DNA from: a virus | Virus record (IMG/VR): IMGVR_UViG_3300043446_004167 | Location: 1 to 64,000 of that record | Length of the DNA: 64,000 bases | Direction: 5' to 3' (one strand) | In this document: piece by piece, positions 3,745 through 20,943 of the stretch | Layout: each line of letters opens with the position of its first letter | Numbering within the stretch: the stretch's first letter is position 1 | Notes under the pieces: model-generated | What the model was told of the DNA's origin: nothing | Seen by the model: the letters and a program-made list of their open reading frames with translations, nothing else | Databases searched by the model: none | Made by a program: the position numbers and the translations under genes

Positions 3745-4683
3745 TCACTCATAAAAATTAGACAATTTCACTTTTTTCTCAATAGACCAACCTATAATAT
3801 CAATCAAGGATTTAATAGGTTGAAGGAAAGTTTTATCGAATTGAGAGTCATAATCAATATACTTATGTAGACCAAGTTCAGTTGGTAACTTTTGAATATA
3901 TGAAATTACATTTTCACGTATTGGATTTGGAAGTTTTAAATAACAACATTTGATTTTTTCTCCATTTGAAATTAATGAATACTTATGAGTAAGATTAAAC
4001 TTACGTAGGTAGTGATTATAAAGTAATGCTCCTCTAGTATGCATTGGAGTACTCTTACCATAAATGGTAATAGGAGAATGGAACTTATCCATATTTGACA
4101 TACCTTGAGGGGTTGAAATCATTTCTGGAGGAAGACTAAAGAACTCTTTTTTAACTTCTTGAATATAACTTATGAGTTCATTTTCCTCTCCATTCATAAT
4201 GATTTTAATTGCATCCTTAATAGCAGTTCTACAGAATGCGGGAGTTGAAGTTTTTACTGCTTCAATTCCTGAGATTTTAATCTTAGGCTCAGAATAACGA
4301 ACTCCTTCATTATCCCATACGTTCAAGATATAATTTTTTTTCTTTCTCCACAATGCAGAAGAGCATATCTTCTCCCTCTTCATATGTAAACAATTTTGAT
4401 AGGCATTTGTTACAATGCATAATTCATCAAAACTCTTATCAATATATTTCTGGAGAACTCCATCGCATACTTCCGTTAGGAAATTTATAACATCTTGTTC
4501 ATTTTTACTCTTACCTTTAAAGAGCTTCTCTACAATTGGGTTAAAATGTAAAAAGCAGCTATTGTGAACACATATATCGTTTGCAAAGAAATTGTGGTTA
4601 TCTTCAACTTCTATATCATATACCCATTCTTCTTGAACTCCTAAGTCTTCTATTTCAAAATCATCATCAAAAATTAGTTCCAT
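3745..4683 (-). CDS. 43: DNA polymerase gp43, C-terminal part, preceded by split-intein C-half
   Basis: The 312-residue product starts with a 41-residue intein C-half: a very acidic leader, block F EWVYDIEVEDNHNFF (19-33) and block G DICVHN ending at Asn41. Ser42 is the +1 residue. From Ser42 (SCFLHFNPIVEKL) it continues the family B polymerase straight after DTD of motif C, through the palm and thumb. It includes the KREKICSSALWRKKKNY segment (KxY-type region, about 104-118), ending in a short C terminus. Joined to residues 1-562 of the 5' gene it makes an 833-residue polymerase, a normal size for marine T4-like phages. The start codon is one base from the stop of the endonuclease gene upstream, suggesting translational coupling. 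Confidence 0.95.
   Translation of the reverse strand: MELIFDDDFEIEDLGVQEEWVYDIEVEDNHNFFANDICVHNSCFLHFNPIVEKLFKGKSKNEQDVINFLTEVCDGVLQKYIDKSFDELCIVTNAYQNCLHMKREKICSSALWRKKKNYILNVWDNEGVRYSEPKIKISGIEAVKTSTPAFCRTAIKDAIKIIMNGEENELISYIQEVKKEFFSLPPEMISTPQGMSNMDKFHSPITIYGKSTPMHTRGALLYNHYLRKFNLTHKYSLISNGEKIKCCYLKLPNPIRENVISYIQKLPTELGLHKYIDYDSQFDKTFLQPIKSLIDIIGWSIEKKVKLSNFYE
4561..4683 (-). other. gp43 split intein, C-half (41 aa)
   Basis: This covers residues 1-41 of the polymerase 3' gene. It contains 14 Asp/Glu and no Lys/Arg, which is extreme for an intein C-half. Block F has the canonical Asp (VYDIEVEDNH), and block G ends Val-His-Asn before Ser+1. The partner is the basic N-half at 5725-6096. Confidence 0.93.
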
Positions 4684-4684
4684 A

Positions 4685-5719
4685 TTAAATAGTAAATTCT
4701 CTACGATTTGATATAAATTTTTTTATTTTTTCCAAAACTTTGCTTGGGTCATTCCTCCATTCACTATCCCAAACAATAATAGTAACATATCCACGCTGGT
4801 CCTCCAACCATTTGGCTTTCAATTCGTCTTGTTTCCATTTTTCTTTTGCTTTCATATGAGTACAACCTCTTCCCCTTAAATGAGAATCTGGTTTATAAAT
4901 TAATGGATTTCCGTGAAAATGATCTCCATGATATTCAATGCAAAATTTTAAATGAGTGCAAACAAAGTCATACAAAAAACATTTATTCTCATATAATAAT
5001 GCATATTCTTTATTTTTAGTTGCATAATAAGTATATTCTCGTTCAAATTCAGTTAGAAACTCCTCAACCTCATTAAAACATCTTTGAGATATTTTGGAAT
5101 ATGAATTACCGCAACTAGACTTTTCATAAAATTCCAATAATTTTTTTCTTCCTATTTCCTCTCCATATCTTTGTATATAAGTATCTAAACTATGTGATTT
5201 TAATTTGTTAACTTTTTTATATCTTTCCTCACCTAGATACTCAACTGTATTTGTAAAAGCTTGCCGTTTACAGTATTCATCATATCTATTCTTACCATCG
5301 TTCTCCCCATATTTTTTTATTAAATTATCTAGAGTAACCGCTCTAGATTTATTATATTCATTAAATTCATCTAAAGATATTCCATATTTTACTTTTTTAT
5401 ATTCATATGTATTTGTAATCGCCTGTTTTCTTCGATATTCATTAAATTTTAAAGTTCCTTTTTCTTTTCCATATACAAAAATCATTTTTTCTAAAAATAC
5501 TCCTCTTTTAAATGAATTATATTTTAATATAAGATTCAAATATTCATCCCATGTTTTTGGTTTATGAGTCTTACCCAATTCTATTCTAGGAACTGAATAA
5601 TTTATAATTTTAAATAATTCATCATAGTTAAATATTTTTTGAAAGGGTGGATAATCCACCCAATTATTTTTAGAACATTGAACTATTATTTTATCGTATG
5701 AAGATGTAGCTTGCGGCAT
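4685..5719 (-). CDS. Vsr-like (EDxHD-type) homing endonuclease inside broken gene 43
   Basis: A 344-residue freestanding endonuclease lies between the two polymerase halves, two bases after the stop of the 5' gene and one base before the start of the 3' gene. The middle holds three related segments of about 50 residues, each with a YGxxxG motif followed by a basic/aromatic stretch (starting near 83, 137 and 185), likely DNA-binding. The C-terminal domain resembles very-short-patch repair nucleases: Asp251, Glu262 in IEYHGDHFHGNP (261-272) with His264, Asp266 and His269, then WKQDELKAKWL and VWDSEW (316-321). Vsr-like endonucleases between split-intein halves are the arrangement described for fractured genes in marine metagenomes. 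Predicted role is cassette mobility into uninterrupted gene 43. Confidence 0.85.
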   Translation of the reverse strand: MPQATSSYDKIIVQCSKNNWVDYPPFQKIFNYDELFKIINYSVPRIELGKTHKPKTWDEYLNLILKYNSFKRGVFLEKMIFVYGKEKGTLKFNEYRRKQAITNTYEYKKVKYGISLDEFNEYNKSRAVTLDNLIKKYGENDGKNRYDEYCKRQAFTNTVEYLGEERYKKVNKLKSHSLDTYIQRYGEEIGRKKLLEFYEKSSCGNSYSKISQRCFNEVEEFLTEFEREYTYYATKNKEYALLYENKCFLYDFVCTHLKFCIEYHGDHFHGNPLIYKPDSHLRGRGCTHMKAKEKWKQDELKAKWLEDQRGYVTIIVWDSEWRNDPSKVLEKIKKFISNRREFTI

Positions 5720-5721
5720 TA

Positions 5722-7782
5722 CTATCTGTGTCCATCTATAATATATATAATCTCATGTTTTAAATTAGATAGTTCACTTGGCTTAATCTTTTTTATTTTT
5801 CCTGTATTTTTAGTTCTTACAATGACTGAATGGTCTTCCGTTATTACTACTGATTTACCTCCTGCTTTAATTCTATAAAGTCTCTTTTTGACCTTATGTT
5901 TCATAACATATTTAATTTTTTTATTTTCAAGATTTCCGTCTTTAGACAAAGATAAAGCATTATGACCATTTACTTTCTTTACATAATTCTCATTAAAATA
6001 ATCTTTTTTTAAATAATCTTCGGGAATTGAATCAAAGAAATTAGAAATTGTCATTTCACCATTATCAACCTTGATGATACTATCTCCAGCAACGCTATCA
6101 GTATCCATTGCTAGAATCATATCTACATTTTTTGACCCTGCAACTTTATTTAAGTAATCATTTAATTTCATCTCAATCCACTTAATAACAGCTTGCCCTG
6201 AATACGTAATGGCTTCTGCATTTCGAATATCATAAAATCTAAAATAAGCATTACCTAAAGAACCAAAAGCTGAGTTTAAGCAAATTTTAAGAGCTTGTTG
6301 ATAGTTTTTATATCTTGTAATGTCCTCTTCTAATTTTTCTGATGGATTTGTTTCATTTAATGATTGACACTCAAGCATCTTTTTTTTGTAAACTGTACGT
6401 TCAGTAAACATCTTCTCCATAATTTTAGGAAGAAATCCCTGCTTACTTTTATCATACATTGAACCATTAGGACAAATTGTGTAATTGGAATGCTCATCCT
6501 TGAGTTTAAAGTTCCCACTTACAATAGATTCAATTGAGACGTAATCATTTCTTTCATTAATTAAAGTCTCGGGACTGATGTTGTAAGTGCGAATCAAAGA
6601 TGGGTATAGAGAAGCTAAATCAAGGCTACATACATATTTAAATTTACCAATTTGAGGTTCTTTTACGTGAGCTCCTTTAAATTTACTTAATTTTTCCGTT
6701 ATATTTTTCTTGGATGGAATTACTATATTATCTCGTTTTAAATAATTGTAGATAATCCCATCCCACATTCTACCCTGATAGTAGACATCTTCTAGATTTA
6801 CTTTTGCTTGATATGCAAGAGTAAAAGCAAGTTGAATTAGACAAAGCTTTTTTTCAAATCTTGAAATTAGTCTACAGTCTTGAACGTTGTACTTAACAAA
6901 TAAATTAAAGTCCTTTGTATAAAAATCTTTAAATGATTCAAACTCGTCGTGGTCTAATTTAGATTCTTTTAGTACTTCTTCTGCAACTGTATTCAAACGA
7001 TTATTTTCAACGTTAATAAATGCAAATTTTTTAAAAAGTAAAAGATAATCTAAAATAGTAATTCCAGCTAATTCATATTCAATTTCAAGTTTATCATTTA
7101 AAGTATAGCTTCTCGATGATACCTTTTTCCAAATGGATAAACGTTTAGTTTCATTATCACCAAAATTTTTAGCTATACGATTAACAATATATGGAATGTC
7201 AAAATTTAATATATTCCAGCCAGTAATAATATCAGGATAGTCATCTTCCCAGAAGTTTAAGAACTTTTGAAGTAAATCTCTTTCATTCTCACACTCATAA
7301 TAAAAATGATTTTCGACGTTATCCGCAAATGGACGAGACCCCCAAGTATGAACTATTCCATTCCTATAGTCTTGAATTGTAATTAACAATATCTCTTCAT
7401 TTGCAGCTTGAGGGTCAATACTACCTTGTTCCGCTGTAGTTTCAATATCTAAAATATAAAGTTTTGTATGTTGAATATCAAATTCAATGGTCTCATCTGG
7501 AAATTTATCCGAAATATACTGATAGATTGAATTTGATTGACCAAAATACTCAAACCCTTCAACTTCTTGATACCTTTCTACAAATTTTCGAGTTTCTGTT
7601 ATTGTACCTGGTTGTACAGGAGTTACAAACCTATTATCTAATGTTAAATAATGAGTTTTTTTATTTGCAGGTACATATAAAGTTGGATGATATTTAATTC
7701 TTTCTTTTATCTCTACTTCATCATCATAACCCCTATAGTAAATATAGTCACCAATTATTTTAACATTAGTATAGAATTTCAA
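5722..7782 (-). CDS. 43: DNA polymerase gp43, N-terminal part, ending in split-intein N-half
   Basis: The 686-residue product carries the 3'-5' exonuclease and most of the palm of the family B replicative polymerase. ExoI LDIETT lies at 111-116, ExoII NFDIPYI at 193-199 and ExoIII YNVQDCRL at 298-305. Motif A SLDLASLYPSL is at 386-396 (Asp388), motif B KICLNSAFGSLGN at 499-511 and the start of motif C AMDTD at 558-562. Ser563 begins the intein N-half, which runs to residue 686 and a normal stop. The break removes the second half of motif C, so the product alone cannot be a working polymerase. The start overlaps the upstream small gene by 4 bases. Confidence 0.95.
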   Translation of the reverse strand: MKFYTNVKIIGDYIYYRGYDDEVEIKERIKYHPTLYVPANKKTHYLTLDNRFVTPVQPGTITETRKFVERYQEVEGFEYFGQSNSIYQYISDKFPDETIEFDIQHTKLYILDIETTAEQGSIDPQAANEEILLITIQDYRNGIVHTWGSRPFADNVENHFYYECENERDLLQKFLNFWEDDYPDIITGWNILNFDIPYIVNRIAKNFGDNETKRLSIWKKVSSRSYTLNDKLEIEYELAGITILDYLLLFKKFAFINVENNRLNTVAEEVLKESKLDHDEFESFKDFYTKDFNLFVKYNVQDCRLISRFEKKLCLIQLAFTLAYQAKVNLEDVYYQGRMWDGIIYNYLKRDNIVIPSKKNITEKLSKFKGAHVKEPQIGKFKYVCSLDLASLYPSLIRTYNISPETLINERNDYVSIESIVSGNFKLKDEHSNYTICPNGSMYDKSKQGFLPKIMEKMFTERTVYKKKMLECQSLNETNPSEKLEEDITRYKNYQQALKICLNSAFGSLGNAYFRFYDIRNAEAITYSGQAVIKWIEMKLNDYLNKVAGSKNVDMILAMDTDSVAGDSIIKVDNGEMTISNFFDSIPEDYLKKDYFNENYVKKVNGHNALSLSKDGNLENKKIKYVMKHKVKKRLYRIKAGGKSVVITEDHSVIVRTKNTGKIKKIKPSELSNLKHEIIYIIDGHR
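5725..6096 (-). other. gp43 split intein, N-half (124 aa), Ser1
   Basis: This covers residues 563-686 of the polymerase 5' gene. Block A is SVAGDSIIKVDNG with Ser as the first residue; block B is VVITEDHSVIV with the TxxH motif. The reading that makes Ser1 the first residue restores DTD + SCFLHF at the splice point, and both junction serines use AGC codons. The segment is basic: 25 Lys/Arg against 15 Asp/Glu, with most of the positive charge in its second half. Confidence 0.92.
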
Positions 7783-19449: not shown

Positions 19450-20943
19450 ATGAAACTAAAAGAATTTATTCAAGAAAATTGGGAAAAATCTAAATTTATA
19501 TCTTTATCTTTAAACAAAGATAAAGTAAAAATTATAAAGGATAATACTCTTTTTTTAGATTCTTTATATCCAAAGGTTCCACTTCGAACTAGAGCTTATG
19601 TTATTATTAATGATATAACTGAAAGTAGTCTACCTCGTTGCAAATGTGGAAAGTATGCAGCAATTAATACTACTCACTCTGAACAAGGATTTCGAAAATA
19701 CTGCGGACCAGAATGCTCTAGATGTGATAAGACTATTGATAAGAATATTTTAAATACTCTTGATGATTATGAGTTCCTATATCAAGAAAAGATCATAGAC
19801 CAAAAATCTATAGAACAAATTGCAGAAGAGCTTAAAATTTCCATTACTCCTGTAATAAAGTATTTAAAAAAGTATAATCTCTATCAATTAAATGATGCTC
19901 GAAGACGCAACACTAAAGCTAATTCTTTGTTATCTGATAGAGACGAACTTATAAATCTTTATAGCAATAACACTTTAGATGAAATCGCAAAAACTGTAGG
20001 TACTACTAAAGCCACGGTTTCTAGGTGGTTTAAAATCCATCAAATTGAAACAAAGCCCTCAAACTCATATGAAAGAAAAATTAAAAAAATATCAAATGAG
20101 GAAAATAGTTTATATGAATATGTAAGTTCAGTTTATAACGGAGAAATACAGCAATCTAATAGAAGCATATTAAATGGCAAAGAATTAGATATTTACATTC
20201 CCGAGCAAAAAATTGCAATTGAATATAATGGATTATTCAGCCATCACTATAGACCTTGGGAAGATAAAGTAGGATTAAAGAAAGACTCAAATTATCATTT
20301 AAATAAAACTATTGAATGTGATAAAAATGGAATTCAACTATTACAATTTTATAGTGATGAGTGGAATTTAAAAAGGGTTATAATTCAGAATATTATAAAA
20401 TCTAAATTAAATTTAAATAAAAAAATATATGCTCGTAGTTGTGAAATTATAGAAGTTGATAGATATTCTAAAAATTCCTTTTTAAATGAATATCACCTTC
20501 AAGGTGAAGATAAAAGTTCAATTAAATTAGGACTTGTATATAAAAATAATATAATTGCAATTATGACATTTGCAAAATCTAGATTTAATAAACATTATGA
20601 TTGGGAATTAACTCGCTATTGTGTAAAAGGTGGTATTAGTGTTACTGGGGGATTTAGTAAATTATTAACTTACTTTAAAACTCAATATAAAGGTTCCATC
20701 ATATCTTATGCAGATAGAAGATATTCAAATGGTAATGTGTATTTAAAAAATGGTTTTAATTTAATTCACATCAATACACCCTCTTATTATTATGTGGACA
20801 AGAACTTTTTAAGAAGAGTTAATAGGATGAATTTTCAAAAGAAAAATATTGGTGCTTATGAATGTACTGAATATGAAAAAGCAAGAGAAATGGGGTTTGA
20901 AAAAATATGGGATTGTGGTTCGTTAGCTTTTGGGTTGTCATAA
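19450..20943 (+). CDS. Freestanding homing endonuclease, Vsr-like/Hef-type, beside major capsid gene
   Basis: A 497-residue plus-strand gene. The N-terminal part has a probable zinc-binding cluster (Cys64, Cys66, Cys85, Cys89, Cys92). Two helix-turn-helix-like stretches follow: QKSIEQIAEELKISITPVIKYL (118-139) and DELINLYSNNTLDEIAKTVGTTKATVSRWF (165-194). The nuclease-like core follows: KELDIYIPEQKIAIEYNGLFSHH (244-266; Asp247, Glu258, His265/266), HLNKTIECDKNGIQLLQFYSDEW (283-305) and a C-terminal domain of about 190 residues typical of these enzymes. It resembles large Hef/I-Bth0305I-like endonucleases of T4-like and giant phages. AAAAGG precedes the ATG. It is convergent with gene 23, ending 48 bases from it, a favoured place for homing genes. 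Confidence 0.82.
   Translation: MKLKEFIQENWEKSKFISLSLNKDKVKIIKDNTLFLDSLYPKVPLRTRAYVIINDITESSLPRCKCGKYAAINTTHSEQGFRKYCGPECSRCDKTIDKNILNTLDDYEFLYQEKIIDQKSIEQIAEELKISITPVIKYLKKYNLYQLNDARRRNTKANSLLSDRDELINLYSNNTLDEIAKTVGTTKATVSRWFKIHQIETKPSNSYERKIKKISNEENSLYEYVSSVYNGEIQQSNRSILNGKELDIYIPEQKIAIEYNGLFSHHYRPWEDKVGLKKDSNYHLNKTIECDKNGIQLLQFYSDEWNLKRVIIQNIIKSKLNLNKKIYARSCEIIEVDRYSKNSFLNEYHLQGEDKSSIKLGLVYKNNIIAIMTFAKSRFNKHYDWELTRYCVKGGISVTGGFSKLLTYFKTQYKGSIISYADRRYSNGNVYLKNGFNLIHINTPSYYYVDKNFLRRVNRMNFQKKNIGAYECTEYEKAREMGFEKIWDCGSLAFGLS

What the first reader, a model, noticed from the sequence alone, without database searches (positions are those of the whole stretch)
3745..7782. DNA polymerase gene 43 is fractured by a split intein with a Vsr-like endonuclease gene in the break
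The 5' gene ends the polymerase at DTD of motif C and continues as an intein N-half. The 3' gene starts with an intein C-half ending in His-Asn and continues SCFLHF. The joined product has a complete motif C (DTDS) and a normal length of 833 residues. Between them, separated by 2 bases and 1 base, is a freestanding Vsr-like endonuclease. This is the fractured-gene arrangement first described from marine metagenomes. Here it affects the replicative polymerase at its catalytic aspartates, so every replication cycle would depend on trans-splicing.
Basis: partly seen in the sequence, partly recalled or inferred. Interest (0 to 1): 0.93.

Follow-up and report, generated by a model that had tools for sequence, protein, structure and literature searches.

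The report
Phage polymerase rebuilt by split intein
In this cyanophage-like virus the DNA polymerase gene is broken in two at its catalytic centre, each piece carries half of a self-splicing intein, and a probable mobile DNA-cutting gene sits in the break; the arrangement is real, but it belongs to a known and, as the searches here show, widespread kind.

Summary
On the minus strand lie gp43-N plus a 124-aa intein N-half (7782-5722), a Vsr-like nuclease gene (5719-4685) and a 41-aa intein C-half plus gp43-C (4683-3745). Splicing would restore DTD|S of motif C in an 833-aa polymerase.

It is not new in kind. Aeromonas phages (Aes123, Aes508, AS-gz) carry the homologous intein at the same site with a homologous nuclease in the break, annotated as 'intein-containing split DNA polymerase precursor'. 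The Aes123 PolB1 intein trans-splices in vitro; PDB 9hth matches it. I found about 130 non-redundant fractured or intein-bearing relatives: contiguous intein, split without nuclease, and split with nuclease at two neighbouring sites; intein-free alleles and nuclease-only breaks also occur. Polymerase and intein trees conflict and the nearest polymerases include intein-free ones, so the element moves.

New here: a short DNA copy of motif C where intein-N meets the nuclease gene, in the window and several relatives, absent from 129 kb of background. It may be a scar of nuclease capture.

The phage also has a second fractured gene (UvsX) and two terminase inteins. Splicing and homing by the window's own proteins are inferred, not shown.

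The parts
6097..7782 (-). gp43 N-extein, 562 aa, exonuclease and most of the palm, ending ...MILAMDTD (TTG start)
   Evidence: PHROG 262 1.9e-190; Pfam DNA_pol_B and DNA_pol_B_exo1; length
5722..6096 (-). intein N-half, 124 aa plus stop, Ser1 ... TEDH ...; net charge +10, no Cys
   Evidence: NCBIfam intein_Nterm 1.1e-6; 44% identical to Aes123 intein-N; charges
5721..5735 (-). motif-C echo ATGGACACAGATAGT (MDTDS in the +1 frame), overlapping the end of intein-N and 1 base before the nuclease start codon
4685..5719 (-). free-standing Vsr-like nuclease gene, 344 aa; D251, E262, G265, H269, W317 invariant in relatives
4561..4683 (-). intein C-half, 41 aa, ending NDICVHN; net charge -14, one Cys
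   Evidence: NCBIfam intein_Cterm 1.5e-9; 69% identical to Aes123 intein-C; charges
3745..4560 (-). gp43 C-extein, 271 aa plus stop, starting SCFLHF
   Evidence: PHROG 262 3.5e-95

Best explanation
A mobile composite element has fractured the replicative polymerase gene (gp43) of a T4-like, cyanophage-type phage: a Ser1/Ser+1 split intein inserted after DTD of motif C, plus a free-standing Vsr-like nuclease gene between its halves. The three genes are translated separately from one gene string. The oppositely charged intein halves bind each other and splice in trans, joining DTD to S and releasing an 833-aa polymerase. The nuclease most likely cuts the uninterrupted motif-C sequence of co-infecting relatives, so that repair copies the nuclease gene and both intein halves, with some flanking polymerase sequence, into the empty allele (homing). 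Shown by sequence: anatomy, homology, conserved residues, empty-site relatives, and movement between lineages from tree conflict. Inferred: that these halves splice, that the nuclease cuts at motif C, and that the phage has no other polymerase.
For: Anatomy and 833-aa spliced length. Intein family matches on both halves. Homologous intein at the same site in Aeromonas phages with a homologous nuclease in the break; that intein (Aes123 PolB1) trans-splices in vitro (PMC11923092) and PDB 9hth matches the window's intein at 1.9e-42. Ser1, HN and Ser+1 conserved in 69 of 69 comparable loci. Same layout in many independent contigs and in Desulfovibrio, Lak, Campylobacter and Klebsiella phages. Nuclease residues D251, E262, G265, H269, W317 invariant in 48 relatives. 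dN well below dS for exteins, intein-N and nuclease against L002, with the caveat that dS is saturated. Mobility: L002 groups with intact L030 from the same metagenome in the polymerase tree, the intein tree groups the window with distant polymerases, and the polymerase data reject that grouping (AU p 7e-59).
Against: No splicing or cleavage data exist for the window's proteins. The nuclease fold match to Vsr is best but not significant (E 0.9). The record is incomplete, so an intact polymerase elsewhere is not excluded.
Confidence: 0.88

Rival explanations
1. The two polymerase pieces work as a non-covalent two-subunit enzyme, and the intein halves no longer splice.
For: Split gp43 without splicing is described for Aeromonas phages 25 and 44RR (review PMC2988022; details from memory). 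In L117/L118, L033 and L143 the same nuclease family sits in a broken polymerase with no detected intein, so splicing is not always needed.
Against: All splicing residues are kept in the window and in 69 of 69 comparable loci; intein-N changes at dN 0.31 against dS 2.2; a homologous intein splices in vitro.
Confidence: 0.07
2. The nuclease gene is a passenger that does not drive homing of the intein; the intein halves spread only by ordinary recombination.
For: 15 split loci have no detected nuclease between the halves and 14 contiguous inteins have none; intein-free and intein-bearing alleles could be exchanged by general phage recombination.
Against: The catalytic residues are invariant, the nuclease occupies the break at two neighbouring intein sites and in intein-less breaks, and in both the nuclease and the intein tree the window is nearest to L002, L037/38, L050, L053 and L066.
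Confidence: 0.15
3. The break is a sequencing or assembly artefact.
For: The window is a single metagenomic contig.
Against: The same three-gene layout recurs in L002, in about 69 non-redundant loci, and in sequenced phages Aes508, AS-gz, Aes123, CP21, KP13-7, Lak-B5 and Desulfovibrio 7757.
Confidence: 0.01

Closest known systems
Aes123/Aes508 PolB1 split intein with VSR-like gene, Aeromonas T4-like phages (JN377894, JN377899, MF479730)
   Same: Same insertion site DTD|S in gp43, homologous intein halves (44% and 69% identical), homologous nuclease (32%) between the halves; PDB 9hth matches
   Different: Aeromonas gp43 has a further break (gp43A/gp43B), and Aes508 also a GIY-YIG gene and a group I intron; the Aes intein is free of cysteine, the window's C-half has one Cys; the window's polymerase is otherwise unbroken
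Fractured genes of Dassa et al. 2009 (cited in PMC6892783; paper itself not held)
   Same: Essential gene broken by a split intein with a free-standing homing endonuclease gene in the break
   Different: As far as I recall those were mainly helicase, IMPDH and ribonucleotide reductase genes; here it is the polymerase. Original sequences were not compared
PolB16 OarG split intein, sheep gut metagenome (PMC10189870)
   Same: Ser1/Ser+1 split intein in a PolB gene with extein residues GDTD before Ser1
   Different: Atypical split with a 15-aa N-half; sequence similarity weak (8cpo/8cpn, E 0.004-0.006)
Pseudomonas phage MIJ3 split PolB intein (PMC6892783)
   Same: Split PolB intein with an endonuclease gene between the parts; N-half begins SVDGSTIL
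   Different: The endonuclease is described as HNH, not Vsr-like; not aligned here
Vsr and I-Bth0305I nucleases
   Same: Among the five PDB sequences hit by the nuclease profile are Vsr (1vsr, 1odg, 1cw0) and 3r3p ('mobile intron protein', I-Bth0305I by memory); Vsr tops the fold search
   Different: Scores are marginal (E 0.02-0.44 and 0.9); the window's protein has a long helical N-terminal part; I-Bth0305I belongs to a group I intron (from memory)

Membership tests
Fractured gene (split intein plus free-standing endonuclease) | Host gene in two cistrons, each carrying one intein half at the break | tested here: met
Fractured gene (split intein plus free-standing endonuclease) | Separate endonuclease gene in the break | tested here: met
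   344-aa gene, nuclease families DUF559/MTES_1575 weakly, conserved nuclease residues
Fractured gene (split intein plus free-standing endonuclease) | Protein trans-splicing restores the host protein | not testable with these tools
   Only shown in vitro for the homologous Aes123 intein (PMC11923092)
Aes123 PolB1 intein allele | Insertion after DTD of gp43 motif C | tested here: met
Aes123 PolB1 intein allele | Homologous intein halves and homologous nuclease | tested here: met
   9hth 1.9e-42; nuclease tblastn hits to Aes phages at 6e-34 or weaker
Aes123 PolB1 intein allele | No cysteine in the intein (characteristic of the Aes123 intein, not of the insertion-site allele) | tested here: not met
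   One Cys in intein-C (DICVHN), none in intein-N
Class 1 intein, Ser1/Ser+1 type | Ser1, block B TxxH, [KR]H motif NX, C-terminal HN, Ser+1 | tested here: met
   SVAGDS, TEDH, MKH, VHN|S; motif NX defined in PMC10189870, assigned here by eye
Vsr-like (EDxHD type) homing endonuclease | Conserved Asp, Glu, His nuclease core | tested here: met
   D251, E262, H269, W317 invariant in 48 sequences
Vsr-like (EDxHD type) homing endonuclease | Vsr fold | tested here: inconclusive
   Best match is Vsr 1cw0 but E 0.9, probability 0.66; profile E 0.02-0.44
Vsr-like (EDxHD type) homing endonuclease | Cuts the intein-free allele and drives homing | not testable with these tools
   Needs purified enzyme and mixed infection
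Two-subunit split gp43 (phage 44RR type) | Two cistrons without intein sequences at the break | tested here: not met
   Both pieces carry intein halves
Replicative family B polymerase gp43 | Exonuclease and polymerase domains, motif A SLYPSL, motif C DTDS after splicing | tested here: met

The most novel reading that the evidence does not exclude
The motif-C echo between intein-N and the nuclease gene is a scar of capture: a Vsr-like nuclease gene that had inserted beside motif C of an intein-free polymerase (compare L117, L033, L143) was recombined, with its motif-C flank, into a contiguous mini-intein at the same site and so split it. This one site would then preserve the steps from empty gene through contiguous intein to fractured gene, and show how natural split inteins arise.
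Probability: 0.3. Interest if true: 0.65.

Novelty: new member of a known kind. Interest (0 to 1): 0.47.

Why it matters
The window's locus adds one more cleanly readable fractured polymerase. The survey matters more: one nuclease family and one intein family occur together and apart at the catalytic motif of phage family B polymerases, in about 130 non-redundant loci and in several named phages. That makes the origin of split inteins, and the partnership of free-standing nucleases with inteins, directly testable on natural intermediates. It also offers many new candidate split inteins for protein engineering.

Tried and rejected
A single-sequence nuclease query of viral contigs found one locus; alignments were needed. 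PDB by single sequence found nothing for the nuclease. A 21-bp per-locus test of the motif-C echo was weak for the window alone (12 of 21 bases; 9% of background windows as good), and a mirror echo at the 3' end of the nuclease gene was not supported. The 12-nt pattern test carries the echo claim, and that pattern was chosen after seeing examples. Group I introns as the explanation of the intein-less breaks in L033, L117 and L143: no Rfam match. dN/dS: dS is saturated and YN00 failed, so NG86 values are quoted only with caution. AU tests for two smaller groups did not finish. Dassa 2009 and the I-Bth0305I paper are not in the library. One alignment and one paper look-up failed on input errors.

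Full report
Observation. The window is bases 1-64000 of a 67,944-base viral record. Translation confirms every coordinate in the finding. The N-extein is 562 aa, intein-N 124 aa, the nuclease 344 aa, intein-C 41 aa and the C-extein 271 aa; the spliced polymerase would be 833 aa. NCBIfam, Pfam and PHROG matches identify the intein and polymerase parts. The +1 Ser of the intein is the native serine of DTDS, so splicing would leave no trace; both catalytic aspartates of motif C are in the N-piece.

Context. Upstream lie gp45, gp44 and RegA and downstream UvsX, the order seen in Kyanoviridae cyanophages. The spliced UvsX is 80-87% identical to four Kyanoviridae, but the polymerase is only 48-50% identical to theirs, while theirs are 70-79% identical to one another. 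L002, L003 and L030 polymerases are equally distant. So the polymerase lineage, not only the intein, looks foreign to its neighbourhood or has evolved unusually fast.

Precedent. Aeromonas phages Aes508, AS-gz and Aes123 have the same arrangement at the same site, with a VSR-like gene between the halves. Against Aes123, the window's intein halves are 44% and 69% identical and the nuclease 32%. The Aes123 PolB1 intein trans-splices in vitro (PMC11923092), and a solved structure with the Aes sequence matches the window's intein at 1.9e-42 (9hth). PolB16 OarG is a second characterised split PolB intein following GDTD (PMC10189870), MIJ3 is a further split phage PolB (PMC6892783), and Jug phages have polymerase genes often split by endonucleases (PMC12363816). 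This settles novelty as a new member of a known kind.

Survey. Searches with intein and nuclease alignments and classification gave 130 non-redundant loci: 69 split with nuclease at DTD|S, 22 split with nuclease at GD|TDS two residues upstream, 15 split without a detected nuclease at DTD|S, 14 contiguous at DTD|S, and 10 others. The sample is not unbiased, since it was gathered with these queries. Four further phage genomes with little or no annotation at the locus also carry it: Desulfovibrio phage 7757 (also recorded as SRB7757), Prevotella phage Lak-B5, Campylobacter phage CP21 and Klebsiella phage KP13-7. In L117/L118, L033 and L143 the same nuclease family sits in a polymerase broken near motif C with no intein detected.

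Mobility. In the polymerase tree the window and L002 are nested among intact alleles; L002's sister L030 is intact and from the same metagenome. In the intein tree they group with L037/L038, L050, L053, L046 and L040 (starred). Holding the six nuclease-bearing rows (window, L002, L037, L038, L050, L053) together on polymerase data is rejected (AU p 7e-59). The window's intein is 58% identical to L037's while the exteins are 40% identical; with L002 the figures are 61% and 74%. Horizontal spread of the element fits; vertical descent alone does not.

Function of parts. Ser1, HN and +1 Ser are kept in 69 of 69 loci; the window has TEDH in block B and the KH of the Ser1-specific motif NX. The charge split of +10 and -14 is the kind that split inteins use to find each other (PMC11923092). 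The nuclease alignment keeps D251, E262, G265, H269 and W317 in all 48 relatives, the model is confident over the nuclease domain, and the best matches, though not significant, are to Vsr. Cleavage and homing are inferred.

Motif-C echo. Just before the window's nuclease start lies ATGGACACAGATAGT, a copy of motif-C coding DNA in another frame than intein-N. L002 (ADTDSN), L037/L038 (DTDSM) and L050 (TDTDS) have it in the intein-N frame, L190 has it just after the intein-N stop, and L053 (DKDS) and L066 (DTDK after the stop) have altered versions. The nuclease-free L046 lacks it, and none is seen in the contiguous intein of L040. The 12-nt pattern occurs in 5 of 113 junction stretches, plus the window itself, and in none of 129,343 background positions; 2000 shuffles gave at most 1. 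The serine codon class agrees with the locus's own motif C in the window, L002, L037, L050 and L053. The pattern was chosen after seeing examples, and the loci are related, so the number of independent events may be as low as one. I read it as a scar of nuclease capture, with probability about 0.3.

Verdict.

Noticed in passing
window 3717-1629 (minus): A second fractured gene: UvsX-N plus a 95-aa intein-N beginning with Cys (3717-2785), an HNH/NUMOD3 endonuclease gene (2739-2071), and a 37-aa intein-C plus UvsX-C (2105-1629). The spliced UvsX is 336 aa and 80-87% identical to Kyanoviridae UvsX.
   Followed up: partly
window 36170-32175 (minus): The terminase large subunit seems to carry two contiguous inteins with LAGLIDADG domains. 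The second appears to end in His-Gln before Thr (GHQ|TPKG), an uncommon ending.
   Followed up: no
window 19450-20943 (plus): A 497-aa free-standing homing-endonuclease-like gene (PHROG 3339, 4.4e-101) on the opposite strand to its neighbours.
   Followed up: no
window 7782-3745 against 3717-1629: The polymerase is only 48-50% identical to Kyanoviridae polymerases while the neighbouring UvsX is 80-87% identical: a possible ancient polymerase replacement, shared with L002, L003 and L030.
   Followed up: partly
L117/L118, L033, L143: Same nuclease family inside polymerase genes broken near motif C with no intein detected, and no Rfam intron in L033, L117 or L143.
   Followed up: partly
L137, L139, L140, L142, L145, L149, L160, L176 and others (22 non-redundant loci): Split inteins with the same nuclease family at a second site two residues upstream, GD|TDS.
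   Followed up: partly
L054, L059: Polymerases that appear to carry two inteins in succession, the second before a C-extein starting CMVQVAKKKY or CAIWVAKKKY.
   Followed up: no
PHROG 22677: This phage protein family, listed as unknown function, matches the window's nuclease at 1.5e-52 and could be named Vsr-like homing endonuclease of fractured polymerase genes.
   Followed up: no
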